Below are positions 9,514 to 63,725 of a stretch of DNA of 64,000 nt, in pieces (the stretch's first letter is position 1; each line of letters starts with the position of its first letter). Both the position numbers and the translations under genes were made by a program. The stretch comes from Jaapia argillacea MUCL 33604 (Eukaryota > Basidiomycota > Agaricomycetes > Jaapiales > Jaapiaceae). The stretch is taken from NCBI GenBank assembly GCA_000697665.1, contig KL197731.1, positions 26,311 to 90,310 on the forward strand, given 5' to 3'. The notes beneath the pieces were generated by a model that saw only the letters and a program-made list of their open reading frames with translations, made no database searches and was not told the DNA's origin.

Positions 9514-10290
9514 ACCCCTTCAAGTTGGAACAACAAACCCTGGTGTCTCCATGATGGAAAACAAGACCTCTCGCGCAATCGAGGATGCTGAGGGTGCACG
9601 GATAACACCCGGGTGATCCTCAGCAGTCGCTTCCACAAAACACAGAGAGTTTGCCTTCTAAGCGTCAGGCCGTCGTTACCTCGTCAAATACCGTGTGCGC
9701 ACTCAAACGGTTGATCGGTCACAAGTCCCAGGAGGCTGTGGTTCATAAAGATCAAAACACAGGTACATTTCATTCGTTCATATAAGTCCAGAATCTGATA
9801 TTGCTGTTCTATAGGCCATTCAAGACCGCTCTGAAGTCCGATCGACGGCACCTGTCGAGGTCGACTCGGGGGACTTTGGAGAGAAGTACTAGTAGGTCTA
9901 CATACGATTCACCTCGTACATCTCTGAATTGGCATCTGACATGGTTTCAGAGTCACCGGATGAGTTATCGTCGATGGTCTTGGTCAAGATGAAGCAGATG
10001 GCGGAGCAGTACCTGGACAAAAAAATCAAGTGAGTATTCCTCACGAAACTGCGTTCAGAAGGTAGCTAATTAGCTTATCATAGGCACACCGTTATTACCG
10101 TTCCCGCCTACTTCAACGACACCCAATAGCGAACTACCAAGAACCCAGGAATCATTGCTGGAATAGACGGTCCTCTACTGCACTGGCCTACTTGTACGAT
10201 CTCGATCGGGTTGATATATCTGTCATCGCCGTCTACGATCTTGGAGGAGGTAATTTCGATATCTCCATCCTCAGTAGGGTAAGTTGGAGA
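9514..10290 (+). pseudogene. Decayed N-terminal ATPase region of a mitochondrial-type Hsp70 (Ssc1/DnaK)
   Basis: Successive frames match the mitochondrial Hsp70 ATPase domain in order: VGTTNPGVSMMENK and IEDAEGARITPG (9514-9614, then a stop), LPSKRQAVVTSSNT with ALKRLIGHKS (9650-9735), LVKMKQMAEQYL (9980-10030), an intact-looking intron at 10031-10083, then HTVITVPAYFNDTQ followed by a TAG, and finally ALAYLYDLDRVD with VIAVYDLGGGNFDISIL (about 10195-10272). At least two in-frame stops and several frame changes mean it cannot make a chaperone. Hsp70 of this class imports and folds proteins in the mitochondrion; the functional parent gene must be elsewhere. The sequence runs directly into the tail of a different Hsp70-like family. 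Confidence 0.85.
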
Positions 10291-10560
10291 AGGTGGTCGG
10301 AAAGAATGGCTTCCCTTCAAGTTCTACAAGCTCGAGTTCGAGATTGAGATATTGTTCGGGTCGCACAGCTGGCAGGCCACGGTGTTTTGGGGGAAGGACA
10401 GAAAGGTCAGCCATGTTTCCACATTTCTCGCCAGCGACCTACTGATAGAATTTCCTAGGTTACGAAAGAAGTAGGCTTCGCTCCACTGGACAGCGCCTCG
10501 TGCGAATGACATCGCACTTGATGAAGTGATAGCTACGTCGGGCAAGTAGCCTCAAAGCAT
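10281..10560 (+). pseudogene. Relic of an HSPA12-like C-terminus, joined to the Hsp70 relic
   Basis: From GTAAGTTGGAGAAGG (10280s) the DNA closely follows the C-terminal coding part of the beta-trefoil/HSPA12 fusion gene at 25808-26090. Both contain YKLEFE(I/V)EILFGS and QATVFWG. Similarity continues through the last intron, the final exon and into the 3' flank (AGTAGCCTCAAAGC near 10545). A small deletion shifts the frame before FYKLEFE. It is non-functional and provides one side of a chimeric junction with the mitochondrial Hsp70 relic. Confidence 0.8.
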
Positions 10561-10902
10561 CGGGATCTTGTCTTGTCCATCTGTTGTATTGCTCCGGGTG
10601 TCAAAACTCGATCCTGGGGGAGCTCCTTCAGCGCTGTTCCCCCGCACACTCAGGCAGCTTAATGTTCGCTCTACATTTCGGTGCAACATCGATGGTGCGG
10701 GCTGTCGCAGCTTCTGGAACAAACGGCATAACTCGTTGTAAACGCGTGGGGTACAGCTACGAGATACAAGTTATATTCCGATCCCCTCAATTCCGGTTAC
10801 GACTCGCTGACGTCCGATAACCTCGAGCTCCCGACCCCCCCAACCTGGATCCCAATTTCAACAGCGGCTTCATCTGTCTGGCATTGTGTTATTGGAGACA
10901 GA
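10561..10902. other. Intergenic, no supported gene
   Basis: I see no domain or exon structure here. It separates the chimeric pseudogene from the 3' end of the convergent beta-trefoil/LamG gene. Confidence 0.45.
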
Positions 10903-12440: not shown

Positions 12441-13356
12441 TGAGAAGCTAGTTGCGGGTCAAGGGGTTCGCGATCGTATTGCAACTTGGGGCGCCCATCG
12501 TCTTTGTTTACACAAGTAATGCCGGGCGCTTCCTGCAGCCGACTCGAATCGGACGTACGGTTCAAAGTGATATGATGTCATTGTCTCTGTGTCCCACAAC
12601 ACAAACTCTCATCTCAAACATAGTCAAGTGGAGTGCTACTACCAACTCGAACCGAGGGACACAGGTTCTTTCCCACACGCACCGATGATTGAGAAACTAC
12701 CAGTTGGTCACTACTCGCAGCGTACAGCGCCTTTTGTCCCTTCCAGCGCAATCTGAGGGGTGGCGATCGTCGAGCTGGTATGTGGGTGCGAAGTTCTAGC
12801 CTGGGGACTCATTAGGAGGAAGGTCAGCAAGTAGGGTTAGGGCAGAAGGGTGTAAGAAGTGGCGGAGAAGGATGGAAGTGGACCGTGTATCGAAAATGGT
12901 GCCTGTTCAACCAAGCAACGACTCGAAGTTCCGTGCGATGTCGGAAATCTGGAATGCCCTTCTAGAAATTCCGAATATTAATTTCGCCTGTTACTTGCAA
13001 TCACTGTATGATTTCCTTTCCACGATCCGCCACAATCAATACCTTTGGCTAGCCTGCCATTCGCTCGAGCACCCCACTCGTTGGTTGCCTCGGTTTCTCG
13101 AAATCCCACTCGAAAGGTATACCGACAGCCCCCTGGTTCACCAGGACAAGGTTATATCTGGACAAAATCTGTACCGCAGGGTCCTGCTGAGCCACGCAGT
13201 TCGATATAGGAGATGTGTGCTAGACGTTTGTTGCAGAAATCACCACAAAAACAAAATCAAAGACGATGTTGGTTGCTCCATGCCGCGTAAAACACATCAA
13301 TTCGTCGCTCGCAAACATACATTGTACAACTGAAAATCGATTCCTCTGCATACTGC
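12441..13356. other. Intergenic, one unsupported open frame
   Basis: A 153-codon plus-strand frame (12872-13333) contains no recognisable domain and lacks clear splice or promoter context; I do not call it. From about 13286 the DNA belongs to the segmental duplication whose other copy starts near 17020. Confidence 0.45.
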
Positions 13357-14254
13357 TCAAGCTTGAGCCCTAATGAAGTTCCACTTGTCCTTGTCATTAG
13401 CAGCCGAGTCCAACTTGACCTAGAAACAAGTCAGCAATTGATTTCGGGGGCTCTCGCCCAGAACATGACCTACAGCTGTCTTATCGGTGCCGCTCACAAG
13501 ACCCCAGAAGAGCGAATCATTGTTGTTCGGATAGATGCTGAATCAATCGCACCCACAGTTAGCCATGGCCAGAGGGGTAACAGAACCGAGGTCCTCACAG
13601 ATATTGGCCTTTGGTACTGGTTTCCTTGATGACCCATTGATACTGGTCGAGACCTGNNNNNNNNNNNNNNNNNNNNAGTTCCACTTGTCCTTGTCATTAG
13701 CAGCCGAGTCCAACTTGACCTAGAAACAAGTCAGCAATTGATTTCGGGGGCTCTCGCCCAGAACATGACCTACAGCTGTCTTATCGGTGCCGCTCACAAG
13801 ACCCCAGAAGAGCGAATCATTGTTGTTCGGATAGATGCTGAATCAATCGCACCCACAGTTAGCCATGGCCAGAGGGGTAACAGAACCGAGGTCCTCACAG
13901 ATATTGGCCTTTGGTACTGGTTTCCTTGATGACCCATTGATACTGGTCAGACCTGGCAGCAACGCGATCGCCAGAGCTGGGAGCAGCGCCGACATAGGCA
14001 TAGTTGGCGAAGACGTAGTTGGCAACAAGGTACTTGTCGCTGCTGAGCAAGGTGATGTTCCACTGGGTGGAATGGTCAGCGTAATTCAGCGTGATCAGAC
14101 GAGTTTGACATACCTTGGTGTCATCGTTATCGGTATCCTTGCTAGCGATGACGGCGGATCCGGTATTGGCGTCTGGGAGAGTCGCAAAAGCACCGCTGTC
14201 GACATTCTTGATGCGGTAGGTGCCGCTTTGGAGCTTTCCGGTGACGTTAGACAT
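13357..14254 (-). CDS. Small beta-trefoil protein (I66-inhibitor-like), copy 1, interrupted by an assembly gap
   Basis: From the ATG at 14254 the exons are 14114-14254, 13899-14062, 13774-13837 and a last exon that starts at 13719 and runs into the N-gap. The sequence left of the gap repeats the same region, so the true last exon is probably the left-hand copy 13357-13419. Joined across the artefact, the protein is the same length (143 residues) as copy 2, with the motifs KLQSGTYRIKN, WNITLL, QWVIKETS, DSLFWGL and KWNFIRA. This pattern resembles fungal peptidase-inhibitor family I66 (cospin-like) and ricin-B-like lectins, cytosolic beta-trefoil proteins often active against foreign proteases or glycans. 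No signal peptide. Exon 3 is 64 nt, as in the two fusion genes nearby. A TATA box is at 14321. Confidence 0.65.
13377..13955. repeat. Direct repeat around a 20-N gap, likely an uncollapsed contig overlap
   Basis: 13377-13656 and 13677-13955 are the same sequence apart from about one inserted base (GGTCGAG versus GGTCAG next to the gap), offset by exactly 300 bases and separated by 20 N. The second copy of this locus at 17100-17390 has the segment only once. This is best explained by overlapping contig ends that were joined without merging. Confidence 0.85.
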
Positions 14255-14320
14255 GTTGGTTGGTAGATTCGAAGAGCTGTAAGAGATGTGGGATGAGGTT
14301 TGAAGTGAGATGGCCTGGGT

Positions 14321-14330
14321 TTATATGTGG
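14321..14330 (-). promoter_or_regulatory. TATA box of beta-trefoil copy 1
   Basis: The minus strand reads CACATATAAA, 67-76 bp before the ATG at 14254. In copy 2 the equivalent site has drifted to CATATAGAC. Confidence 0.5.
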
Positions 14331-14399
14331 TTTTACGACGCGCCCCATGGGGCCATTCCATGGTTGGATACAGCTCTATCTATAGACCGCATAGTACGA

Positions 14400-15610
14400 G
14401 TGATCATCCGATCATACCAAATCGTCCCGCTTGGTAATGTTGCGAGTAGAGCGGGAATGTTCAAGGTCTAGAGAGAAATCCCAGAAGGAGACAGGGCCAG
14501 CCTACATCAACGAGTCATGCCAGATGGAGCGTGCATTCAACACAAACGGATTGTGAACTCGATGAACCTTCTGGTCAACATGGAGGTCCCCCTGATCCAA
14601 AAAAACCCCAAGGGGCTTGGAGAACCTCGTGAAAGCAAACTATCACGTCGGAGCTGCTCTCCCTCCGACTAGCATCGAAATGAGTACCCCAAATCCAAGG
14701 CATGTAGATTTCGCCATCGCACCTCACTGTTGAGTCACTGCACGGTGGCAGTGGCGAGAAAACTCTAGAAAGACGACCGCCTGACATCGCCGATCTTTAA
14801 CACCACTGGAGTAAGGTAAGGGTACCCCAAAATAAAGTTGAGCTTTACACACCGTCGGAAAACCCTCTGTCAATGGCCCGGTAAACCCTCGGCCTTGGTT
14901 GCCAGTGAGAAATATTTCAAATGCATGTCTCAATAGCGGCAGAGGGTATTAGCGGACGCCATAATGAACGGGTACAGGATATGTCCATTAAGCCAAGGCA
15001 TGTCATGGATCACCAGGATGACGAGCGAAGGGGACTTACTGCGCTGAAATGTTACAATCTGTCGTATGGTGCATTGGGTATCATTTCGGCATCAATTAAA
15101 TCCAATGGTGGTTCAGCTCAGTGGTCCTGTAGGAAACGGGGGAGTTCTCGATCCAGGATGTATCGACTTCAAGTTCGTGATTGCCAGAACAGAGAACAGT
15201 TCAAACATTGGCGCCCGGGTGTGACAGAGTCACAACATACCATGTGACCCAGTCAGTGTTCGGCCTCCTCAATCCACTCACGAACGTTGCGAGGACTTCT
15301 GCCAAATTCCGACCAATCAATGTCCCCATCACCCACGAAACGTTCATTAATGCTCCATTCCCTGAGTAATATTAGACCAGGATACCAATGCGCCCAATGT
15401 GGTCCTCATTGCGTCTCGCACGCGTACACGTTTGTGACGCAGAATTGCGCAAGGCTAGTGCCATTCCATCCTGTGCATATGACCGCAGCCTCACCGACAG
15501 GGTCCGTCTGGTCTTGTTCATTTGGAGGACGAAAACCTTCGTCTGGCTTCTGTCCCCTTGCTCTGCGAGGGTCCTCGACATGAGAATCAATTGATCACCT
15601 TGCCCCGTCG
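14400..15610. repeat. Left copy of a decayed segmental duplication (relics of an unknown minus-strand gene)
   Basis: This stretch aligns in order with 17830-19480, for example 14540-14640 with 17960-18075, 14990-15020 with 18470-18500 and 19010-19045, 15270-15340 with 19170-19235, and 15370-15590 with 19255-19470. On the minus strand pieces look formerly coding (PWLNGHILYPF, matching DTPWVDGHMLNPF and DTPWLDGGMSNPF in the other copies), but stops and frame changes are frequent. I do not recognise the protein. Confidence 0.6.
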
Positions 15611-16186: not shown

Positions 16187-17020
16187 TTAGTAGTCGTCTC
16201 GCGGAGTTGAAAACTCGGGAGGACCCATGTAGCAGTGTACGGTAAACTCCACAGATACACTGTTGTTGAGCTCGACGTTCTGCATGATGGTGCCATCGGC
16301 GACCCTCCAGTCCCCGTGATCCCCCCAAATTTCCTCCCAAATTTCCTCGGAACCACGTGCATAATGGGCACATGTGACTCAGCGCGACATCCTTCAGATT
16401 CGGTCTTACCCTCCAGGCCGAATACTGCTCCTGTCATCGACTTGGAGCCTTTGTCACCCCCACCTCGGAAACCATCGTATAACTCCCTGCGTACAGCTAG
16501 TGGGTCAATTTCGACTTCGGGATGGGGAGGATCGTTGACTATCCCATGACCTTCAAGTTCCGTCCTGTGAATTTGACCAAGACCCCCCGTCTTGTCGAAA
16601 GGTACATAGGATTGAAACATACTGTCGAGGAACCGCGCGAGCCGTGCCTCGTGATGCAGCTATAAGTTAGTTCCATCAATAGACGAGGTCAGGGCTAAGG
16701 AGTTTCGCTCCCCTCTTACCAACTCGAATGCGACGACGCGAACCGTCCTCACGTGAGATCTCGCCAATTTGATCTCTTCGCCCCAGAACCTTTGCGCCGA
16801 TGGACCAAGAAGGAAAGTACGCCTTGTTTTCATCGGACAGGAAGTAGGGGGATGAGGGTTGCGTGGGGGACAAGTGCATACTCGCCGTCGACCGATTCAG
16901 AGACACGGAGTTTGAGTCGCTAATCCTTTCCCGTATGACATCCGCCTCAAAACAGGGGGGGCTTTTCAGAAGCTCATTGGACACAAATGATATCAATGTC
17001 GGTCCCTCCAGTAATGTCGT
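16187..17020 (-). pseudogene. Partial gene of unknown function, 5' end apparently lost at the duplication breakpoint
   Basis: Several adjoining minus-strand segments look coding: an exon with LISFVSNELLKSPP, PSSPYFLSDENKAYFPSW and GAKVLGRRDQIGEIS (about 16725-17015), an exon with LARFLDSMFQSYVPF and GQIHRTELEGHG (about 16500-16660), and a last exon with VADGTIMQNVELNNS, VEFTVHCYMGPPEF and a TAA at 16187. Plausible short introns join them. I do not recognise the family. The coding signal stops at about 17020, exactly where near-identity with the 13286 region begins, so the 5' part was probably replaced when the beta-trefoil segment was duplicated here. Confidence 0.45.
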
Positions 17021-17090
17021 CGTAAAACACATCAATTCATACTCGCAAACATACATTGTACAACTGAAAATCGATTCCTCTGCATACTGC

Positions 17091-17688
17091 TCAAGCTTGA
17101 GCCCTAATGAAGTTCCACTTGTCCTTGTCATTAGCAGCCGAGTCCAACTTGACCTAGAAACAAGTCAGCAATTGATTTCGGGGGCTGTCACCCAGAACAT
17201 GACCTACAGCTGTCTTATCGGTGCCGCTCACAAGACCCCAGAAGAGCGAATCATTGTTGTTCGGATAGATGCTGAATCAACCGCATCCACAGTTAGCCAT
17301 GGCTAGAGGGGTAACAGAACCGAGGTCCTCACAGATATTGGCCTTTGGTACTGGTTTCCTTGATGACCCATTGATACTGGTCAGACCTGGCAGCAACGCG
17401 ATCGCCAGAGCTGGGAGCAGCGCCGACATAGGCATAGTTGGCGAAGACGTAGTTGGCAACAAGGTACTTGTCGCTGCTGAGCAAGGTGATGTTCCACTGG
17501 GTGGAATGGTCAGCGTAATTCAGCGTGATCAGACGAGTTTGACATACCTTGGTGTCATCGTTATCGGTATCCTTGCTAGCGATGACGGCGGATCCGGTAT
17601 TGGCGTCTGGGAGAGTCGCAAAAGCACCGCTGTCGACATTCTTGATGCGGTAGGTGCCGCTTTGGAGCTTTCCGGTGACGTTAGACAT
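17091..17688 (-). CDS. Small beta-trefoil protein (I66-inhibitor-like), copy 2, intact
   Basis: Four exons (17548-17688, 17333-17496, 17208-17271, 17091-17153) encode 143 residues. The chain is three similar beta-rich segments, with KLQSGTYRIKN, SAVIASKDTDND, KWNITLLSSDKYLVAN, QWVIKETSTKGQY, NDSLFWGLVSG and KWNFIRA, as in beta-trefoil proteins of peptidase inhibitor family I66 and ricin-B-like lectins. No signal peptide; such fungal proteins are usually cytosolic and can inhibit trypsin-like proteases or bind sugars. Which of these applies cannot be decided from sequence. It is near-identical to copy 1 through coding, introns and about 150 bp of promoter. The same domain with the same introns is fused to other domains at 10903-12440 and 23218-26051. 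Confidence 0.75.
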
Positions 17689-17829
17689 ATTGGTTGGTAG
17701 ATTCGAAGAGCTGTAAGAGATGTGGGATGAGGTTTGAAGTGAGATGGCCTGAGTCTATATGTGGTTTTACGACACGCACCACGGGGCCGTTCCATGGTTG
17801 GATACAGCTCTATCCACGGACCACACAGT

Positions 17830-19740
17830 GCGAGTGATCATCCGACCGTGCCAAAATCGTCCCGCTTGGTAATGTCACGAGTAGAGCGGGAATGTTCAAG
17901 TTCTAGAGAGAACCCCCAGAAGGAAAAGGGTCAACTTAGATCAACGAGTCATGCCAGATGGAGCGTGCATTCGACACAAACGGATTGTGAGCTCGATGAA
18001 CCTTCCAGTCAACATGGAGGTCCCCCTGATCCAAAAAACCTCAAGGGGCTTGGAGAACCTCGTGAAAGCCAACTATCACGTCGGAGCTGCTCTCTCTCCG
18101 ACTGGCATCGAAATGAGCACCCCAAATGCAAGCCAAGTGGATTCGCCATCTCACCTCAATACGACCATGATTAGATGGGGTGTACCCCAAAACAAAGTTG
18201 TGCGCCGGGGTAGACAGAGACTTGATGTGGGACATCCGCCTGAATTGGTCAAGAGTATGATCAATTGATTCACGTTCCGACATACCTCAGTAACCTCAGA
18301 CTTCTTGGGCGATATCGATCGGTGATGCTCTTGATGCGTACATATTTGCAGACCGTCAAAAAACCCTTTGTCCATGGCCCACTGAATCCTCAGCCTTGGC
18401 TGGGAAAAACGTCAAATACGCGTCAGGATATATCCACGGCCATACTGAATGGGTTCAGCATATGTCCGTCAACCCAGGGCGTGTCGTGGATCACGAGGGT
18501 GACTGTTACTCGATGAAGCTTCTGATCAATACGGGGGCTCCTTGAAGCCATAAAATCCACCTAAAGTCCCTTGCAGAACCTTGTGAAATCAAGATCTACA
18601 CCGGTGCAGCGCTCTCTCCGACTGGCGTCAAAATGAGCACCCCATTTGCTAGGTCAGTGAATTTCGCCATCTCACCTCATTGTTGAGTAGCAAGCACCCT
18701 CCGGAAGGACGATCATCTGATACTCCCGATCTTCAATACCACTAGGATGTACCCCAAATGAACGCCGAAGACGAAAGAACCTCCATGGGAGACGTCCATT
18801 CACTGGCAATGTGATCAAGGGTGTGCTCAATCGGCTCCAATTCCAACATACCACACCTCTGGCTTCTGGGGCAATATCGCAGAGTCCCCCTTAGGGATGC
18901 GTACATAGTCACAGAATATTGGAAAATCATCAGCCGTTGTTGAGAAATATACGTGTCTCGAAAACTGTTGAGGATTTTCGAGGTGGCCATACTGAATGGG
19001 TTCGACATACCCCCATCAAGCCAGGGCGTGTCGTAGATCACCAGGGGTGACTGAGCGTACTGAGCCGAACTATGTTGAAGATGGAGCGGGTTGCAGAACG
19101 GTTCAAGCATTGGCAGTGTGACAGAGTCCAAGTCACATGTAAGTAACCCCAGGCTGCGGACCCACTCAACTTCCACTCGCGAACGTTGCAGCGACTTTTG
19201 CTAAATTCCGACCAATCACTGTCTCTACCGCCCACGAAACTTTCATTATTGTTAGACCAGGATGTCGATGTGCTCGGAATAGTCCTCATTTGCGTGCTCA
19301 CGAGGCAGAATTGCGCGGGAGTGCAGGTCTAGTGCTTCCTAGTAGCGCTCCACCCTTTGTATATGACCACAGCTTCGCTTATTGCACCCGTATGGTCTTG
19401 TTCATCCGGGGAACGAAAACCTTCGTCCGGCTTCAGTTTACCCTCTTGCTCTGCGACGATCTATGCCTTCAAGGATACTAGCCACGTGAATCCCCTCGGA
19501 TTGCAACAGCCTCCTACCACCCTCATGTTCTGCGCTCCAGAGTACTGGATTCTTGCCCCGGAGATGCCTGGTTCTACTTCAGCCCCATACCAGGAACTGG
19601 GGTGTTCGGGGAGGTACCCGATGATCACTGCTGGTGGTGACAGATCCGATGATGATACCCATACCAGCTGGATCAGACTAGCACACTTCGTCTCCGCAGA
19701 CCAAAGAACCAGTTTTCGTGTCATTGATTGTGAAATACAG
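17830..19740. repeat. Right copy of the decayed segmental duplication, with an internal repeat
   Basis: Besides matching 14400-15610, this copy contains the same unit twice in tandem: about 17992-18510 and 18511-19050, each with TCGGAGC..CTCTCTCCGACTGGC and ATACTGAATGGGTTC. Minus-strand frames such as VIYDTPWLDGGMSNPF (about 18990-19060) and QLVWVSSSDLSPPAV with GISGARIQYSGAQN (19500-19680) look formerly coding. The latter vaguely recalls DM9/DUF3421 repeats, but stops interrupt it and I do not call a gene. Confidence 0.55.
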
Positions 19741-20020: not shown

Positions 20021-22252
20021 TCATACAAATTCAGCAGGGATGAGAGTCGCTGGGCCTTGGCATGTCTTTCCCTAGTCGAAGATGAGGTGTCAAGTTCGGG
20101 GCGCGAAAAATTTATTGGTGCGGACTTACATTCTCAACCCAGAGGATTCGCGCTGAAGGCGAAGTTGAACCAAATGCGATCGCAACCTCGAATTCTAGAT
20201 ACCAGTACGGGCCGTTTGGACCATTTCTCATGGGTAGCTTTCCCTGTAGGTTGGATATATCAGCGTTTATCGTGCATATTTCTTGGATCCCCTCCACGAA
20301 TTTTCCTACAAATGGCGTGACTCTCAGAGACATAAAGACCGAGTGATGCGAACACACCTGCAGAGTCGCAGACCCACTGCGTATTTGCTGCAGTTTCATT
20401 CGCAGTGAATACCGAGGTGTTGAAGTCGGCGAGACGCGCATCTTTGGTTGTGTAGGCTCGATAGTACGACTTCTTTCTTTCTTGGTTATCCTTCAAGAGC
20501 ATACCCTGGATATAATATCATGAGGTCACAAGCACGCAAGAGTAGATCAAACCACTCGCATATGGGACAACTAAGTCCCAACCACCGTTCACGAAATCGC
20601 CATTTGGGTATCGAGCGAAACCTCGTTTAACGTGCTCCGGGTCATGGGAATTGTACGGCACAATGATTCGCTGACCAAATGCAAAACGGGCGGCACGAGC
20701 AACGACACTGTGCTTTAGGAACCAAACGAGAGCCCCGGATACGGCGGCTTTGACACTGCGGTGTTGTTGGTTAGCAGAGGAAAGGTCGCACACGGAGGGG
20801 ACTTACTTTTTCTTGCCGCCTTGGATGACAGGCATGCCTGGCTCATATTCATCCCTCAGCTGATCTTGAAAATAGGGAGAATTTCCGAAGTCTCCCAGGA
20901 GGAGAAGGTGCTGAAGAGGTTCGATATCAAATATGAATAGGAACAGATGCGCGAACGATAACAACCTTTGGATCATTCTTTCCTTTGAGCTCGTTGATAC
21001 CCGAAATGATAAGTTGAATCTCCTTATCGAAGTGCTTCGCTACGTCTTCACTGTTCAAATTTATAAGACAAGCTTTGAATAACAAGGCATTTGACGACTC
21101 ACCGAGGTACTTCCAGTTTTCCGTCAGGGAAATAGTTCTTTTCGGTCTCAACGTCGACGGGGAAGGTGTAGATGTCTTCCGAGGCATCAAATGTGGTCTT
21201 TGCCTTAGAGAATTCTGCTCGCACATCCTCTGAGAGCTTAGCAATTCCTTCGTCGTCGAGCTTGTCCGCGAACATATGGCCAACCATGTCGTCGAACGAA
21301 TCATCGATCAACTCGGATCCTGCCTCGATACCTAGAGAGACATCAGTATCTGTGAGCCCAGTGCCAACCCAGCGTGAGGCTCACATTTCGAGGGGAATCC
21401 TTGTATCTCCTGTAACTTCAATGGAGAGCGTTGGTTGACTGAATACAATGCGATGTCCGTCGTCGAGCCACCAGAATCGCAGACGATGAACTTTGTGCCA
21501 GCCTATAAAATAGCTTGAACGTCGAATGGTAGCACAAATGGCTGCCAACTTACATCCAGTTTGAGTTTGCCTTCCAACATCGCCCAATGAACGGCTGCTT
21601 CAGTTTCGGGAACGAAGGCCGCTTTTAAATCGTCTTTGATGATGCCTGCTGCGACCGCGGCACGGGCTAGAAAGCCATACTCCTGCGTATACCACCCGTT
21701 CGGAACGGTGAAGACGACTTCGACCGTTGGTGCAAGTCGTTGCCAGACCTCGTTCCCAAATTTGCTGACGAAGATGGATCGTGCGTGTTGAAAGAGGTAT
21801 TTCAACCAATCTCTGTATACTGAGTCAATGTTGATGTTTGGCGGGAGAGTCAGGATATTAGCTTTGTCGACCGTAGTTTCGGAGAAGGGGCGCCCGAGTT
21901 GGTGTACATGTCGCTTGAAAGAGTGGACGTAGGCCCATCCCTCTTTCTCCCCCTGCTCCACGATTTTGTCCATCTTCGTCCGACCCCCGTAGGCGCGAGG
22001 AGTGCCACTTTGATCATAAAACATGGCCGTCAAAACCTTGGCTCTCTCAGCTGCCTCAGGCTGGTCAGGCCAAGAGCTAACGTGCTCGACCCGGGGCCTT
22101 TGACCGGGGAGAAGGTACAGAAATGAGACAGCCTGACGATGCGTCAGCGCAGGTCACATCGAGGGGGAAAGGTGACATGCAGATTGTGTGGTCCCAATAT
22201 CGATGGCAAAAACGACCTTGAGTTCACCAGTCCAAACGTCGAGGCTCGCCAT
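20021..22252 (-). CDS. HSPA12-like Hsp70/actin-fold ATPase
   Basis: Ten exons (22181-22252, 21554-22132, 21385-21502, 21103-21331, 20966-21050, 20807-20910, 20560-20755, 20358-20505, 20130-20305, 20021-20071) sum to 1758 nt, 585 residues, typical for fungal HSPA12-type proteins. ATP-site motifs are present: phosphate-1 AIDIGTTQS (16-24), phosphate-2 CDSGGSTTDIALY (about 225-237), and the adenosine-site LLLLGDFGNSPYF (about 363-375). The family shares the Hsp70 nucleotide-binding fold but lacks the normal peptide-binding domain; its role in fungi is largely unknown. Introns 1 and 7 appear to begin with GC instead of GT; the paralog at 23218-26051 has GT at the intron 7 position. The gene is head-to-head with that paralog, 965 bp apart. 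It looks intact. Confidence 0.82.
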
Positions 22253-23217: not shown

Positions 23218-26051
23218 ATGGGTTCCAATGCATATGAATCTGGAAAACTTCAAAACGGGCGCTACCTCATCAAGAATGCTACTTTGGGTACTTTTGTCCG
23301 CCTCTTCAACGGAGATGACCCGTCCACTCTTCAGGCCTATGACTCTAACGACTCGGAGGACTTGAAGGTACGCCCCCTCTTCAACTTGATGAGAATCTCG
23401 ATACGATCTCGTTGACCTTCAGTGGGACATTGAAAAAACCTCTGACGGAAAGTACACCGTGACGAACTACAGATGGCATCACAATGTCTACGTTCGTGAC
23501 GAACCAAGTAACCATGATGTGGTCAAGGCTTGGTCGCTATCTGTTGGAAGATCTCCTTTCAAGTGGGAAATTAGACCGATGAAGCAGACTGCCAAGTATC
23601 TGTGAACCAACTTCCTTCCCATGCCCGTGTATCGCCCATGGCTCACCACGTGATGGATTTATTCCAGCATCTCACCAGACAACGACTCGGATCTCTACTG
23701 GGACTTTGGGAATAGTACTACGGGTACAGAGGTGCGTCAATATGACAATTCACTGGCGACAACTTGTCAATGCGTCGGTTCTGCTACCCATACCAAATCT
23801 ATAGCTCAAGGTTAGATACTCCAACATGGCTGGGAATCGTTTCTGGCACTTCATCCGCGCGCCGACCCCTTCCACCGATACATCGCCGCAGCCCACAACT
23901 TCTCCCCGTCCACCACCACCTATAGTCCCACACGACCCACCCCCATCCAACGCACCGAACGACTCACCGAAAGTCTCTCAACCAGACCGTGAAGAGAAGA
24001 AAGCGCTTATTTTCAGTATGGACGTTGGGACAATATCTTCGGTTGGTCATCCTCTCCCGAATCCCTCTTTTTAGCCATCTTTACCTTTTATTGTGTTTAA
24101 AGGTTGTCTCCTTCTTGCGTCCTGACGACGCAGCTCCGGTACCCGTCAGTAATTGGCCTCTGAGCAATGCCAACGTCCGAGCTGTTCCATCGGTTATGAC
24201 ATTCAATCCGGGTGGGAAAATCCTCTATGGGCGTGAATCCGAACCAGCAGGAGGGCCCAATGTCGTGGCAGGTTTCAAGCGCAAGGTGCTTCAGCTGTGG
24301 AGCGCCGATCAGGCTAACGATATTATTCCCGGTCATAGCATCGCATCCGTTTACGAGGATTGGATACGATTTCTATTCCTGCGTGCCAAGGAGGTATTTG
24401 AGAAGAATAAGCGGGGCTCTGATCGCGAAAATGATTGGAAAGAAAGGCTTCTCATATTCGCCATTCCAAATTCTTGGACTTTGACCGAACAGACGATACT
24501 TCGTGACACAATTGTTGCCGCGGGATGTGTCGAAGACAAGAATAACGTCCGCTTCGTAACTGAGTCAGATGCCGTCCTTCACCATCTGATTCACAATAAA
24601 GGGCTGAAGTTCGAGGTCAGTGTCGTGGTAGCTGATAAACATTTTGCTGATGCGATGTCAATATGTCTAGGATAACAAAGAGTTTATCATCTGCGATGCC
24701 GGAGGGTCGACAATTGAGGTGGCCTTGTACCAGGTAAAAAGGGCCAGTCCTTTGATGATTACCCAAAAGGCAAAAGCGCCATCGAGCAGTAGGCCATGTT
24801 ATGTAACTTGCCAAGGGTTCAGGCCTTGATTCTGTGTTTTCCTAGCCGTCAAGCTCGATCTTTTCAAGGCATACACACAATATGCCACAGAGTTGCAAGG
24901 GACCATGGTAAAACCGCAAGAAGGGGAAGATCAGGAAGAGGATTTTGGCGATGAAGCTGGGGAGGAGAAAGAGTGAGTTGACCGACACTGCGTCTCTCAA
25001 TCGGTGACCGTAGCGATTCTAGGGATCCTTTGCAAGATTGTGTTGACACAATCCAAACGGCCATTGATCAAATTGCAGAGGGTAATGCGCCCAAGGTACG
25101 CGTTATTCACTCGTTCTCTTCATCTCTGAAACGAAAATGTCGTAGACGCTTATTTTGATGGGCGGCTTTTTTAACATCCCGCGAGTCTATGATGATTTGC
25201 GCGGACACTACGAAGGAAAAGGGATGGCGGTCGCTAAGCGGTGCGACCTTTCACTGATAGGCTAATACGCTTGACTTACTCGTTCCATAAGGGCTGAACA
25301 GAGCGCTGTTGCGGATGGGGCTCTTTACTTTTATCGCTGCAACGCCGTGGTCGCTCATGCCGCTCCGTTCGGTTATGGTTGTAGTGTCCTAGTGTCAGCA
25401 AAGGCGAACAAAAACGGTATTGAAGGCAGGAAAGTGCTTAGATTCCCGAATGGGTTGTTTGTGGAGGGCGGCTGGAGTCCGATTATCGTCTATGTGAGTC
25501 TTCTAATCACTTATTCCATCACAGGGGGTCCGGAACTCGCAATAGGGACAGCTCGTGCAAGAGGGCGAAAGATCGAAGAGGATGTTCTACACCAAAACTT
25601 ACGCCAGCAGATATGCAGAACTTTCAAAAGTTGAGGTCGACCTATACGCACGGGGAAGAGAAGGAAACCCCGATTGGGTATTTGATAAAAATGGTAAGAA
25701 CAGTTGTTCCGTTATAAGTTCTCACTTCAATAGATTTCTGCTACAGGGAATCTCATGAAAGGTTTCTGGACCGTTGCTACAATTCAAGTCGACTTCTCGG
25801 AACTGGAGGGTAAGTTGGAGAAGGTGAACAGAAGGAATGGCATCCCCTTCTACAAACTCGAGTTCGAGGTTGAGATATTGTTCGGGTCGCAAAGCTTGCA
25901 GGCCACGGTGTTTTGGGGGGAGGGCGGAAAGGTTAGCCGCTGTTTCCAAATTTCTTACCAGCGGTCTACTGATGGAATTTCCCAGTTTATGAAAGAAACG
26001 AGCTTCGCCCCACCAGCCGATGCCTCGGACAAGTTTAAGCATACTCGGTGA
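23218..26051 (+). CDS. Fusion protein: beta-trefoil (I66-like) domain, Pro/Thr linker, HSPA12-like Hsp70 ATPase
   Basis: Thirteen exons (23218-23367, 23423-23601, 23668-23731, 23811-24041, 24103-24615, 24671-24788, 24846-24972, 25023-25095, 25146-25240, 25292-25493, 25552-25693, 25747-25931, 25986-26051) keep one frame for 714 residues. Residues 1-147 are the beta-trefoil domain (KLQNGRYLIKN, KWDIEKTSDGKYTV, DSDLYWDFGN, FWHFIRA). A Pro/Ser/Thr-rich linker follows (about 148-195). The rest is HSPA12-like: a degenerate phosphate-1 loop SMDVGTIS (200-207), CDAGGSTIEVALY (387-399) and LILMGGFFN (487-495). Relative to the neighbour at 20021-22252 it lacks the segment that in the neighbour reads SELIDDSFDDMVGHMF to EKNYFPDG. 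Exon 4 crosses the junction, so the fusion is genomic and not an artefact of joining genes. Catalytic activity is uncertain because of the altered first loop. The last intron (25932-25985) is 54 nt and could also be read through. Confidence 0.72.
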
Positions 26052-40337: not shown

Positions 40338-40948
40338 TTGATCCACGCCAAGTGTGTTTGCTAGAGGAGTTCAAGTTCGCGCCGAGGATATATAAACCTT
40401 GGGCGTAGGTGTCGGCGTCTATGAAGAGGACATGTGCAGTTAGAGAGGTGAACTAGTGCCTCGAAGGGACTATTAAGTTGGGCACGAGGACGATAAAGGG
40501 AACTAACGATACCTTACCTACAGAACCCAATCTTATCACGGTGTATTCCTCGCGTGTGTCTCCAAAGACATGGTAGTCCCATATCCAAGCATTTTTGTGA
40601 ATGAAATGGGCCAAATGTTTCGCAGATGATAGTGGAGGGTCCGAAGAGCTGCAGATTGAATCGGCGGTATCGATGCCGCGGCAGCGCCAGAGTCTCCATG
40701 AACTCCGATAATCCTGACATCTGAGCCGAAAATGCACATTATATTCTTGAACGAGGTGAATGATATTCAGCATGTCTAGTGTCTTCAACATTCGTCGATA
40801 GCAGGGGCAACGTCGCACATGGTCGAGGACATGCTTTTCGATCATCAAAATATTCCTAATCACCCCACATTTTCTCGAACCAGCTGTATTACAAAAACCC
40901 TCAACCGAAATCCCAGGACTCCTATTTCTCCCTAAATACCACGCCTGC
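40338..40948. other. P4 promoter and hydrophobin 1 3' flank
   Basis: From about 40780 the DNA is part of the hydrophobin duplicon (its mate starts near 47530). A long minus-strand frame here is only read-through of the hydrophobin introns and 3' flank. No separate gene is supported. Confidence 0.5.
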
Positions 40949-41396
40949 TTAGAGGGTAACGGGGACGCAGCCAATGGAGATAAGACCGCCTGCGAGAGGG
41001 ATGCGTGAATATCAACGAAAACAACGGAAAGTGTCACGAAAGGGAATATACCGTGGGAGTTATCGCTGCAGCATACAGGCGAAGCAGAGCTACGAGCAAA
41101 ATGAGTGGATGACTCTCGACTCTCAACTTTGAAGGGACTTACCAAGAGGAGCCAGAGCCAACACCAATGGCGGTGATGGGCGAGCAAGTCAAGCCAACTT
41201 CAGTAGTGAGATCCTGGAGGACGATGCCAAGGAGCGCGAGGATACCGGCAGCGGCGGGGTCGCTCGCGGTCTCAACGGTGTTGCAGCACTGGATGGGGCC
41301 AGTGGTACAATCGCTAGCTGGGATTGGGGTAGTGTCCCAAGCAGCAGTGGCGACAGCAAGGATGGAGAGAGTGGTGAAGGTGGCGAGTTTGAACAT
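40949..41396 (-). CDS. Class I hydrophobin, copy 1
   Basis: Three exons (41143-41396, 41052-41089, 40949-40989) encode 110 residues. A signal peptide (about 1-19) precedes eight cysteines at 30, 37, 38, 71, 85, 91, 92 and 105, the C-CC-C-C-CC-C pattern. The C2-C3 to C4 spacing of 32 residues is the class I type. Hydrophobins are secreted and assemble into amphipathic films on hyphae, spores and fruiting bodies. The last residues (GGLISIGCVPVTL) are typical of agaricomycete class I hydrophobins. Introns are short with GT..AG borders. Nearly identical to the copy at 47711-48159; a TATA box lies at 41468. Confidence 0.95.
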
Positions 41397-41467
41397 TGTC
41401 GGTTTGTTTGGTGGGACGTACAGATGGATGTCTGAGCGATGGAGTTTGGAGGACTAGATGTGAGGGT

Positions 41468-41475
41468 CTTTATAG
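41468..41475 (-). promoter_or_regulatory. TATA box of hydrophobin 1
   Basis: The minus strand reads CTATAAAG, 72-79 bp before the ATG at 41396; conserved in copy 2 as CTATAAAAA. Confidence 0.65.
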
Positions 41476-42572
41476 GATTTCTGCACGGGAGGTGAGTGAG
41501 TTATTCGGCCCCCTGATGACAGTCAAGGAGTCCATCGTTGCTGATGGCTTGCATGGTGTTGACAGGTACTGAGAAAATGCCAGCAGAGCAATCGACTGCA
41601 GAGCTTCATCAAGGGTGCAAAGCATAGTCGTCAGGGACGGCAACAAGAGCATTGCATGTCAAAGTGGAGTGCTTGGGAAACATTCGAGAACATCTGATCA
41701 TGAACTTTGAGGCATCAGACGGCCTCCGACAAATGTAGGATGATGCAGTGGTTGGGTTACGCAACTGCAAACGATGTTGTAGCCTGATCCGAGGAACGAG
41801 GTAGATAAGGTGTGGGAGCGTAGACGGAAGTCTGGTGTCCGCCCAGTAAAGCGTCCAGCACGGAGGCCGCGAGATGGCCAATGATATCTGTGAATGCTAT
41901 GTGGATGACCAGGAGAGTTGGCGGTGTGGAGGAACAAATGCTATCGGCGTTTGCCGAGACTGGTTGGGTCGGTCCGAGTTCACGTTGTACAGTACCACCA
42001 CACAGACATGAACATCTCAAGCTCTGTACACGACTCCAGAAGAAAGCTTTACCTTCCTTCTTTCCCCATTCTGTGATTATGTCATCATGGGTGCAACTAG
42101 TACTCTTGGACTCGCTAAACAAGGCCATATGCGTTCGCTTACACACTTATGTGCCTGCCCCTGTCAACGATGAATGCTGTGAGTTCATTGTTCTCTTTCA
42201 CACCGAGTGGAGTGACCGGTAGTATATTGAAGGAATGATATCGGTTCCGCTGAGTTTCTGTCAGCCTTTCACGACCAAATGCCGTGAGCAGACAACAACT
42301 TCGTCGCCATTTCTCTCCATGAGACCTCTGCCATCGTTATCATTGTCCCCCGTCTGTCAATCATCACGCTGAACCGTGAAACCTATTCCGATTTAATTGT
42401 CTCATCGGCACAGATGTTCTCAGTGGAAAGATTTCATTATGTATCTCACAAGGAGTGGCTTCCCAACCCTCATCTTTGGATTCCCAACAACTATATACCT
42501 ATACCATACGCAAGCCCCCGCTGTCGCCCCCCGACTCCCAACGACCCATCCAGTGCTGCATAGGACCATCAA

Positions 42573-47529: not shown

Positions 47530-47710
47530 ACGATGCACGTCCGGTGTCTTCGATATCCGTCGATAGCAGGGGCAACTTCGCACACGGTCGTGAACATGCT
47601 TTCAATAGTCAAAATCTTTCCAATCACACCACATTTTCTCGAACAAGCTTTATTACAAAAACCCTCAACCAAAATCCTAGGACTACTATTTCTCCCTAAC
47701 CACCACACCT

Positions 47711-48159
47711 GCTTAGAGGGTAACGGGGACGCAGCCAATGGAGATAAGACCGCCTGCGAGAGGGATGCGTGAATATCAACGAAAACAACGGAAGTGTCAC
47801 GAAAGGGAATATACCATGGGAGTTATCGGTGCAGCATACAGGCGAAGCAGAGCTACGAGCAAAATGAGTGGATGACTCCCGACTCTCAAATTTGAAGGGA
47901 CTTACCAAGAGGAGCCAGAGCCGACACCGATGGCGGTGATAGGCGAGCAAGTCAAGCCAACTTCAGTAGTGAGATCCTGGAGGACGATGCCAAGTAGCGC
48001 GAGGATACCGGCAGCGGCGGGGTCGCTGGCGGTCTCAACGGTGTTGCAGCACTGGATGGGACCAGTGGTACAATCGCTGGCTGGGATTGGGGTAGTGTCC
48101 CAAGCAGCAGTGGCGACAGCAAGGATGGAGAGAGTGGTGAAGGTGGCGAGTTTGAACAT
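47711..48159 (-). CDS. Class I hydrophobin, copy 2
   Basis: Three exons (47906-48159, 47815-47852, 47711-47751) encode 110 residues with the same signal peptide and eight-cysteine pattern as copy 1. The only protein change I can see is Ser to Thr after the second cysteine pair (VCCTDNSHG). The start at 48159 is preferred over an upstream in-frame ATG because the signal peptide begins there and a TATA box lies 70-80 bp upstream. Both copies look functional, so gene dosage or separate regulation is possible. Confidence 0.95.
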
Positions 48160-48229
48160 TGTTGGTTTGTTTGGTGGGACGTACAGATGGATGTCTGAGC
48201 GATGGAGTTTGGAGGACTGGATATGAGGG

Positions 48230-48238
48230 TTTTTATAG
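48230..48238 (-). promoter_or_regulatory. TATA box of hydrophobin 2
   Basis: The minus strand reads CTATAAAAA, 71-79 bp before the ATG at 48159. Confidence 0.65.
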
Positions 48239-48770
48239 GATTTCTGCACCGGAGGTTAGTGAGTTATTCGGCCCCCTGATGACGGTCAAGGAGTCCATCG
48301 TTGCTGATGGCTTGCATATTGTTGACAGGTACTGAGAAAATGTCAGCAGAGAAATCGACTGCAGAGTTTCATCAAGGGTGCAGAGCATAGTCGTCAGGGA
48401 CGACAACAAGAACATTGCAAGTCAAAGTGGAGTGCTTGGGAAACATTCGGGGACATCTGATCCGAGGAACGAGGTAGATAAGGTGTGAGAGCGTAGACAG
48501 AACTCTGGTGTCCGCCTAGTAAGCGCCCAGCACGGAGGCCGCGAGACGGCCCATGATGTCGATGAATGCCAGTAGCTTGGCCGACGGTCGGTGGGTGGCC
48601 AGGAGAGTTGGTGGTGTGGAGGAACAAATGCTATCGGCTTTTGCCGAGACTGGTTGGGTCGGTCCAAGTTCAAGTTGTACAGTACCACCACACATACACG
48701 AACATCTCAAGCTCGGCACAGGACTCCAGAAGAAGGTTTTACCTTCCTCCTCCCTCCATTCTGTGTCCAG

Positions 48771-49140
48771 TTTGTGTCACCATGGGTGCAACTAGTATTC
48801 TCGAACTCGCTAAACAAGGCCATATGTATTCGGTTACACGCTTACGTGCCTGATCCTATCCACGACGAATGCTGTGAGTTCATTGTTCTCTTTCACACCG
48901 AGTGGAGTGACCGGTGGTATACTGAAGGAATGATGTCGGCTTCGCTGAGTTTCTGTCAGTATGTCCCGTTTGTGTCACCCTGGGTGGAGCTAGTATTCTC
49001 GGACTCGCTAAACAAGGCCATATGTGTTCGGTTACCCTATCCACGACGAATATTGTGAGTTCATTGTTCTCTTTCACACCGAGTGGAGTGAGCGGTGGTA
49101 TACCGAAGGAATGATGTCGGTTTCCCTGAGTTTCTGTCAG
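48771..49140. repeat. Tandem duplication of about 180 bp inside the right duplicon
   Basis: 48771-48959 and 48969-49140 share long identical stretches, for example GAGTTCATTGTTCTCTTTCA and GTTTCTGTCAG, with a small deletion in the second unit. The left duplicon (about 42080-42270) has a single copy. Confidence 0.8.
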
Positions 49141-49320
49141 CCTTTTACGACCAAATGCCGTGAGCAGATCACAACTTCGTCGCCATTTCTCTCCGCGAGA
49201 CCTCTGCCATCGTCATCGTTGTCCCTCGTCTGTCAATCACCACGCTGAACCGTGAAACATGTTCCGATTTATTCATCTCATCGACCCAGATGACCTTATT
49301 GGAAAGATTTCATCACACTA

Positions 49321-62397: not shown

Positions 62398-62514
62398 TCT
62401 ACACGAGAAACAGGCACGACTTTGTTGCCGCAGCAAAGCCTGAATAAGTCACGTAACATTGCCTCCATTAGCTACTGACTGTGAAGCGAAAACATGGCTG
62501 ACAATTAGCCTTAG

Positions 62515-62954
62515 ATATGCTGTCAGCTTTGCTGTAGTGTACAACTCTAACCACAAATTTTGAATATTGATACCTACCACATATTCTAAGTTTGCTGACT
62601 GAGAATGCTGCACCGACATTGGCCACAGCACACCCAAAATGTGGTGATAGCTAAAATATTGCAGTGGACTTAGACTTTGTTGGGGTGAAATGCTTTGAAT
62701 TTGTTGTGGCAGATTATCCTTGGTTACCATGGTTACTCTGCCAATAATTGGACATGTTGCCACAACAAATTCAAAGCATTTTGCCCCAACAGAGTTTAAG
62801 TCCACTGCAACATTTTAGCCATCGCCATATTTTGGGTACATCGTGGCCAATGTCGGTGCAGCATTTTCGGTCAGCAAACTTAGAATATGTGGTAGATATC
62901 AATATTCAAAATTTGTGGTTAAGGTTGTACACTACAGCAAAGCTGACAACATAT
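62515..62954. repeat. Fold-back element, two 198-bp inverted arms
   Basis: 62515-62712 and 62757-62954 are reverse complements at roughly nine of ten positions without gaps, around a 44-bp centre containing the near-palindrome GGTTACCATGGTTA. The RNA or single strand would form a very long hairpin. Both arms keep the same open frame (QQSLSPLQ, PMSVQH, SANLEYVV, INIQNLWL). Confidence 0.8.
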
Positions 62955-63725
62955 CTACTGTTAAGGTTCAGGTACTCGGCCATACCCAGAAGTTGGCCAC
63001 CTTGCCTCTCCACATCGTTATATACCTCACATGCAGAAATTGTGGTGTACATTGCAGAGTAAATAGCCTGAATGCATTGCATTCCAATTTTGGAGTGAAT
63101 CCGCCCAGTATTGAAAGAGAAATTGTCTGGCCAAGAGTGTCAAAGGGCCATTACAGATGAAATTCACATGTGCAGAAACACCACTTCCTCCTTGTTCTGT
63201 CTCTCCGCCTTGCAACACTGCCTCAAATCGCTCACTTCAATGTCTTGTCTGCTCTACTAGGTCTGGTCTATATTATACTTTCTCAAATCACTCTATATGG
63301 TAGCCAGTACCAAGTTATTTGAGAGAAATTTCAGCAATACTTCAATTCTCAAATTCTGGAGCGCTCAGTTCAGATGGGAGATTGGGAGATGAGTATGCAG
63401 ACTCACCTCTGTGACTCTATCGTAAGACATTCTATCGACCTCTCCCTAGCTGATACAATTTTTTATAGGGATCTCTCATCTTTTCCAGCTTGTGTACATG
63501 GCTCTCAAGCACAAAATCCAATTTTCTGCCCCTCCCCACTCACGAAATAAATTTGGCTTCCCTCATAACTCTATCAGCTCCAGTCACCCTCCAGTCAAAT
63601 CTCTAACATCCTGGGCCTGTTGTGAACACGTCTGGACTTGTATATTTTCTGTTGTTTTCATTCTTTTATTGGACTTCCTTCGCTTTCGTATCATTTCCCT
63701 TGTCTATGATACTCAGCATCCTTTT
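62955..63725. other. AT-rich intergenic, no supported gene
   Basis: Small open frames only; no domain or splice structure. Confidence 0.45.

What the first reader, a model, noticed from the sequence alone, without database searches (positions are those of the whole stretch)
23218..26051. A beta-trefoil (I66-like) domain fused to an HSPA12-like Hsp70 ATPase in one gene
One continuous 13-exon frame joins a complete three-segment beta-trefoil domain, a Pro/Ser/Thr linker and a complete-looking HSPA12-type ATPase. Exon 4 itself spans the end of the trefoil (FWHFIRA), the linker and the first ATP loop, so the fusion is in the DNA and does not depend on an assumed splice. I know of no described protein pairing a protease-inhibitor or lectin-like trefoil with an Hsp70-type ATPase. 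Such a protein could sense a ligand and change state with ATP; that role is inference.
Basis: partly seen in the sequence, partly recalled or inferred. Interest (0 to 1): 0.85.

Follow-up and report, generated by a model that had tools for sequence, protein, structure and literature searches.

The report
Lectin-like domain fused to Hsp70-type ATPase
A fungal gene joins a small lectin- or protease-inhibitor-like domain to a trimmed HSP70-type (HSPA12-like) ATPase; the join is real and is found twice in the genome, but what the protein does is unknown.

Summary
The fusion is real. The 13-exon frame at 23218-26051 is open, and its parents lie in the same window: standalone trefoil genes (4 exons) and an HSPA12-type gene (10 exons); 4 + 10 - 1 = 13. 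The fusion's 12 intron phases repeat the trefoil's 3 and the HSPA12 gene's 9 in order. A diverged copy of the same architecture lies on contig C5, but a 7-nt insertion (exon 1) and a 2-nt loss (exon 7) make it a probable pseudogene. Profiles support both domains: trefoil with an agglutinin and cocaprin 1 (1.8e-7, 2.7e-6), ATPase family with Hsp70 (2.2e-8, four sequences, fusion included). The trefoil and exons 7-9 diverge at or above the neutral rate; exons 10-12 are constrained. Function is inferred: most likely a cytosolic recognition or defence protein. No transcripts, other fungal genomes or confident structure were available.

The parts
23218..23367 (+). exon 1, trefoil segment 1 (start ATG)
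   Evidence: phase 0 as in standalone trefoil exon 1
23423..23601 (+). exon 2, trefoil segment 2; highest second-position divergence of the exons measured
   Evidence: phase 2 as in standalone gene; divergence
23668..23731 (+). exon 3, trefoil segment 3; 64 nt, same length as in the standalone gene
23805..24041 (+). exon 4: end of trefoil (to about 23867), Pro/Ser/Thr linker (about 23868-24000) and first ATP loop; the fusion joint
24103..24615 (+). exon 5, first part of the ATPase
24671..24788 (+). exon 6, second phosphate loop (DAGGSTIEV); 118 nt as in the neighbour's exon 3
24846..24972 (+). exon 7, 102 nt (34 codons) shorter than the neighbour's exon 4; lacks the GGEDFD-like segment
25014..25095 (+). 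exon 8 (a second in-frame acceptor lies 9 nt further on)
25146..25240 (+). exon 9, LILMGGFFNIP motif (adenosine-side label recalled)
25292..25493 (+). exon 10
25546..25693 (+). exon 11; 148 nt as in the neighbour's exon 8; NG86 omega 0.17
25747..25931 (+). exon 12
25986..26051 (+). exon 13 with stop TGA
20021..22252 (-). standalone HSPA12-type gene, 585 aa, 10 exons, head-to-head with the fusion; 35% identical to its ATPase; two introns need GC donors in this model
17091..17688 (-). standalone trefoil gene, 143 aa, 4 exons, 36% identical to the fused trefoil
13357..14254 (-). second standalone trefoil gene, same protein over its first three exons, then interrupted by an N gap and a partial repeat
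10276..10601 (+). decayed remnant of exons 12-13 and 3' flank of a third copy: 86.2% to the C5 copy over 326 columns, 84.0% to this gene over 212

Best explanation
A trefoil gene and an HSPA12-type gene, both present as separate genes in this cluster, were joined head to tail: the trefoil's last exon runs through a Pro/Ser/Thr linker into the HSPA12 gene's first exon (shown by anatomy). The product is one protein of about 721 residues with no obvious signal peptide by eye, so probably cytosolic (inference). The trefoil is the part that meets a partner, a glycan or a protease as in its relatives (inference); it changes fast. The ATPase keeps its phosphate-loop residues but has lost the GGEDFD segment, so it most likely binds nucleotide weakly or not at all and serves as a folded base rather than an active Hsp70 cycle (inference). 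The most likely role is intracellular defence or non-self recognition (inference). I hold the fused gene itself at about 0.95; the confidence below is for the whole functional reading.
For: Open 13-exon frame and joint in exon 4. Phases: standalone trefoil 0,2,0; neighbour 0,0,1,2,0,2,0,1,0; fusion 0,2,0,0,0,1,2,0,2,0,1,0. The C5 copy has the same order; exon 4's two indels are 3 and 9 nt. 6 of 8 coding indels between the copies are multiples of 3, 0 of 6 intron indels are. Whole-gene omega 0.64 (0.51-0.79, NG86) or 0.79 (2dL 4.35, ML). Profiles match an agglutinin and cocaprin 1 and Hsp70. Second codon positions differ at 49/147 in the trefoil against 120/583 intron sites (p 0.0015) and 17/178 in exons 10-12 (counts rebuilt from the rounded fractions). 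Cocaprin 1 is a mushroom protease inhibitor discussed as a regulator of own proteases or a defence protein, and the Discussion speaks of cytoplasmic lectins and inhibitors in fungal defence (PMC9104457: abstract, Discussion).
Against: No transcript or protein evidence. The C5 copy is broken in exons 1 and 7, so the architecture is not shown to be kept in two working genes. Trefoil omega is not above 1 (ML 0.95, NG86 0.71), and against 4-fold sites the trefoil excess is not significant (p 0.12), so fast change may be relaxed constraint. Synonymous NG86 divergence in the trefoil also exceeds introns 1-3 (39/94 against 26/171). Defence and ligand are by analogy only. The model of exon 5 was poor (pLDDT 45.7) and its fold search gave no match at E up to 0.001.
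Confidence: 0.4

Rival explanations
1. A young chimera with no selected joint function: a rearranging gene cluster fused two genes, and the protein drifts.
For: The locus shows much rearrangement: tandem trefoil copies, a remnant of a third fusion copy joined to broken Hsp70 pieces, and a C5 copy with broken frame beside a truncated HSPA12 gene. Trefoil ML omega is about 1.
Against: Whole-gene omega is below 1 (NG86 0.51-0.79; ML 2dL 4.35), exons 10-12 are constrained (ML 0.47, 2dL 9.34; NG86 0.33, 0.20-0.55), and 6 of 8 coding indels keep frame. The window copy is intact although introns of the two copies differ at 120 of 583 sites.
Confidence: 0.25
2. An Hsp70-type switch: the ATPase binds and hydrolyses ATP, and ligand binding by the trefoil changes its state.
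For: The Asp-x-Gly-Thr loop, the Lys of FKR, the Glu of TESDA and the DAGGST loop are kept; that these stand for Hsc70's D10, K71, E175, D199 and T204 is recalled.
Against: The GGEDFD segment and part of the following helix are missing, and the Asp of GGST-x-D is Glu. HSPA12-type proteins lack a classical substrate domain (recalled).
Confidence: 0.15
3. A fused defence effector: the trefoil is the active inhibitor or lectin, and the HSPA12 part only stabilises, stores or tethers it.
For: Relatives of the trefoil are lectins and a mushroom protease inhibitor (PMC9104457), and standalone trefoils sit nearby.
Against: The ATPase tail (exons 10-12) is the most constrained part, more than a passive tether needs.
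Confidence: 0.15
4. Two adjacent genes wrongly read as one.
For: Both parts exist as separate genes nearby.
Against: Exon 4 is unbroken across the joint, with no stop, and its linker aligns in frame in the second copy.
Confidence: 0.03

Closest known systems
Cocaprin 1 (Coprinopsis cinerea, PDB 7znx)
   Same: Beta-trefoil of about 140 residues, matched over nearly the whole domain (profile 2.7e-6; single sequence 6.8e-4); a mushroom cysteine and aspartic protease inhibitor (PMC9104457)
   Different: A free 15-kDa protein; distant in sequence; not fused to an ATPase
Agglutinin of PDB 4g9m (Rhizoctonia solani; species recalled, the record says agglutinin)
   Same: Profile match 1.8e-7 over positions 11-148
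   Different: Free lectin; sugar-binding residues not compared here
HSPA12-type Hsp70 relatives
   Same: Same order of DxGT, FKR, DxGGsT and GGF motifs and the same C-terminal part; 35, 24 and 26% identity to three such proteins of this genome
   Different: N-terminal trefoil; lacks the GGEDFD-like segment. The label HSPA12 is recalled: no HSPA12 record was on hand
Fungal NOD-like receptors
   Same: Modular intracellular proteins whose recognition repeats evolve under positive selection (PMC4986451: start of abstract in a listing, and passages)
   Different: NACHT or NB-ARC switch with repeats, no Hsp70 fold, no trefoil; an analogy only

Membership tests
Beta-trefoil, RicinB_lectin_2 (PF14200) | Score above Pfam's cut-off | tested here: met
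   30 bits (whole protein) and 36.3 (domain) against 25.6; standalone trefoil 33.2; 3 of 3 members of A2 listed at E up to 1, the C5 row read across its break with X
Beta-trefoil, RicinB_lectin_2 (PF14200) | Three-fold internal repeat | tested here: inconclusive
   Trp 51, 98 and 145 of the fusion, spacing 47, are invariant in 3 of 3 trefoils, with a fourth invariant Trp at 121; suggestive, no structure
Beta-trefoil, RicinB_lectin_2 (PF14200) | Glycan binding | not testable with these tools
   needs an assay
Peptidase inhibitor I66 (PF16850) | Score above Pfam's cut-off | tested here: not met
   13.9 and 18.5 bits against 27
Peptidase inhibitor I66 (PF16850) | Protease inhibition | not testable with these tools
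   needs an assay
Hsp70 (PF00012) | Score above Pfam's cut-off | tested here: not met
   fusion not listed at E up to 1; neighbour none at E up to 10; two C32 relatives 14.1 and 10.9 bits against 20.6
Hsp70 / actin-like ATPase superfamily | Profile similarity to Hsp70 ATPases | tested here: met
   four-sequence profile A3 (fusion, neighbour, two C32 genes): 119 PDB sequences at E up to 1, best 2.2e-8; the 60 shown bear Hsp70-family names, one only HYDROLASE. The signal may come mainly from the C32 genes; the exon-5 profile gave two chance hits, no Hsp70
HSPA12 type | DxGT, FKR, DxGGsT and GGF motifs in order, with the C-terminal part | tested here: met
   alignment with three relatives of this genome; motif roles and the family label recalled
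HSPA12 type | GGEDFD-like segment after the second phosphate loop | tested here: not met
   gap of about 26 columns; exon 7 shorter by 102 nt
HSPA12 type | ATP binding or hydrolysis | not testable with these tools
   needs purified protein

The most novel reading that the evidence does not exclude
A new class of fungal intracellular non-self receptor, in which a rapidly diversifying trefoil recognises a foreign glycan or protease and a reduced Hsp70-type module takes the place that NACHT or NB-ARC holds in NOD-like receptors.
Probability: 0.1. Interest if true: 0.85.

Novelty: new variant of a known kind. Interest (0 to 1): 0.5.

Why it matters
HSPA12-type Hsp70 relatives are poorly understood (recalled); a natural fusion to a domain with testable ligands gives a handle on what such modules do. 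The locus also shows, in one window, both parent kinds, the product and remnants of a gene fusion, with intron phases that record the event.

Tried and rejected
I66 membership: rejected by cut-off. Own-genome family searches with PF16850 (no match) and PF14200 (one match under cut-off, on C67) were uninformative: even this gene was not found, as it is scored exon by exon. PF00012 gave 44 matches, none at the fusion, the neighbour or the other HSPA12-type places. Positive selection on the trefoil was weakened on testing: NG86 omega 0.71 (0.44-1.13), exon 2 1.39 (0.65-3.47), exons 7-9 0.90 (0.52-1.67); ML 0.95, 2.14 (2dL 3.27, not significant) and 1.22. The excess over introns is significant in 5 of 5 such comparisons of second positions (trefoil against all introns and introns 1-3, exon 2, exons 7-9 upward; exons 10-12 downward), but over 4-fold sites upward only in exon 2 (p 0.023) and exons 7-9 (p 0.033), uncorrected for nine tests. 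Exon 5 folded with the neighbour's exon 2: pLDDT 45.7; fold search 235 matches at E up to 10, none at 0.001, with MreB, DnaK and mortalin only among insignificant rows: no evidence either way. Neighbour protein against PDB: one chance hit, E 0.094. Ten paper searches, all used: HSPA12 with beta-trefoil gave 0 papers; HSPA12 with 'lectin domain' gave 11, 10 listed, none about fungi by title. They cover an open-licence library only, so absence from print is not shown. Other fungi could not be looked for: the collections on offer hold prokaryotes, viruses, phages and plasmids (I ran no scan of them), and the metagenome cap was zero.

Full report
Observation. The region reads as one gene of 13 exons, 23218 to 26051, with GT..AG introns and one open frame of 721 codons plus stop in my model. 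Exon 4 (23805-24041) carries the end of the trefoil, the linker and the first ATP loop without interruption, so the join does not rest on splicing.

Where it came from. The window holds both parent kinds. A standalone trefoil gene (17688-17091, minus strand, 143 aa, 36% identical to the fused trefoil) has 4 exons with intron phases 0, 2, 0; a second copy lies at 14254-13357, with the same protein over its first three exons and then an N gap and a partial repeat. A standalone HSPA12-type gene (22252-20021, minus strand, 585 aa) stands head to head with the fusion and has 10 exons with phases 0,0,1,2,0,2,0,1,0; two of its introns need GC donors in my model. The fusion's twelve phases are 0,2,0 followed by 0,0,1,2,0,2,0,1,0. 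Thus 4 + 10 - 1 = 13 exons: the last trefoil exon and the first HSPA12 exon have become exon 4. Exon 3 (64 nt), exon 6 (118 nt) and exon 11 (148 nt) have the same length as their counterparts. The fusion's sites were fixed, before the neighbour and the standalone trefoil were modelled; those were picked by eye with the fusion in view.

Second copy. Contig C5 carries the same order of trefoil, linker and ATPase. Between the copies introns are 71-89% identical, trefoil exons 1-3 62-71%, exons 7-8 61-62%, exons 10-12 80-88%. Of 8 indels in exons 6 are multiples of 3; the others are a 7-nt insertion in exon 1 and a 2-nt loss in exon 7 of the C5 copy. Of 6 indels in introns none is a multiple of 3. 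The C5 copy is therefore probably a pseudogene, unless the assembly is wrong there. The duplicated block includes the 5' part of the neighbouring HSPA12 gene; the genome search found only residues 22-84 of it there. No trefoil of this family turned up outside the window and the C5 copy (E up to 10; only the best candidates are scored).

Domains. A profile of three trefoils matches 9 PDB sequences at E up to 1: an agglutinin (4g9m) at 1.8e-7 and cocaprin 1 at 2.7e-6 over nearly the full domain, then an insecticidal crystal protein (2.6e-4) and other lectins, with one unrelated protein at 0.094. Pfam's RicinB_lectin_2 passes its cut-off; I66 does not. Trp 51, 98 and 145 are invariant, spaced by 47 in the fusion. 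For the ATPase, the fusion shows no HSP70 match in Pfam at E up to 1, and an exon-5 profile none in the PDB. Its identity rests on a chain: 35% identity to the neighbour, 24 and 26% to two genes on C32, one of which matches Hsc70 structures weakly (best 0.0021), and a four-sequence profile, fusion included, that matches Hsp70 ATPases at 2.2e-8. The name HSPA12 is recalled; no HSPA12 record was available. By my grouping of exon hits the genome holds eleven other HSPA12-type places: five on C32, two each on C8 and C10, one on C12, and the neighbour (lower bounds).

The ATPase is reduced. After the second phosphate loop the fusion lacks about 26 alignment columns that pair with Hsp70's HLGGEDFDNR..KKD; its exon 7 is 127 nt where the neighbour's exon 4 is 229 nt. 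The Asp of GGST-x-D is Glu. The first loop, FKR, the Glu of TESDA and the second loop remain. Weak or lost nucleotide cycling is an inference, not a result.

Rates. Introns differ at 120 of 583 sites and 4-fold sites at 53 of 207, a neutral yardstick of 21-26%. Second codon positions differ at 49 of 147 in the trefoil, 24 of 58 in exon 2, 38 of 100 in exons 7-9 and 17 of 178 in exons 10-12 (rebuilt from the fractions). So the C-terminal part is constrained, and the trefoil and exons 7-9 are at or above the neutral rate. ML omega is 0.79 overall, 0.95 in the trefoil, 2.14 in exon 2 (not significant), 0.47 in exons 10-12. Diversifying selection on the trefoil is suggested, not shown. Of 722 codons 708 were usable; gapped codons and stops were dropped.

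Reading. The best account is a two-domain protein, probably cytosolic, whose trefoil meets a glycan or protease and whose Hsp70-type part is a reduced scaffold, used in defence or recognition. The fused gene I hold at about 0.95, the functional reading at 0.4. Cocaprins are discussed as regulators of endogenous proteolysis or as defence proteins (PMC9104457; abstract, Discussion, one passage). Fungal NOD-like receptors show positive selection in their repeat domains (PMC4986451; passages), an analogy only.

Limits.

Noticed in passing
window 9521-10601 (+): Four PF00012 pieces (profile positions 5-204; two over the cut-off, two weak; stops inside some), followed directly by a decayed stretch of the fusion gene's exons 12-13 and 3' flank: a chimeric remnant.
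   Followed up: partly
window 13280-14726 and 17014-18158: Tandem duplication, 95-97% identical, carrying the standalone trefoil genes; beside the N gap a 280-base stretch repeats at 99.6%, perhaps an assembly fault.
   Followed up: partly
window 40770-42437 and 47535-49313: Another set of direct repeats, 84-94% identical, in several pieces.
   Followed up: no
window 62512-62957: A stretch that matches its own reverse complement at 86% over 449 columns.
   Followed up: no
L022 37-803: On C5 only the 5' part of the neighbouring HSPA12 gene matches, next to a piece that matches window 19149-19238, as after an internal deletion.
   Followed up: partly
L023 1130-6240: Two tandem HSPA12-type genes of usual form, with the GSVFVNRRA segment that the fusion lacks.
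   Followed up: yes
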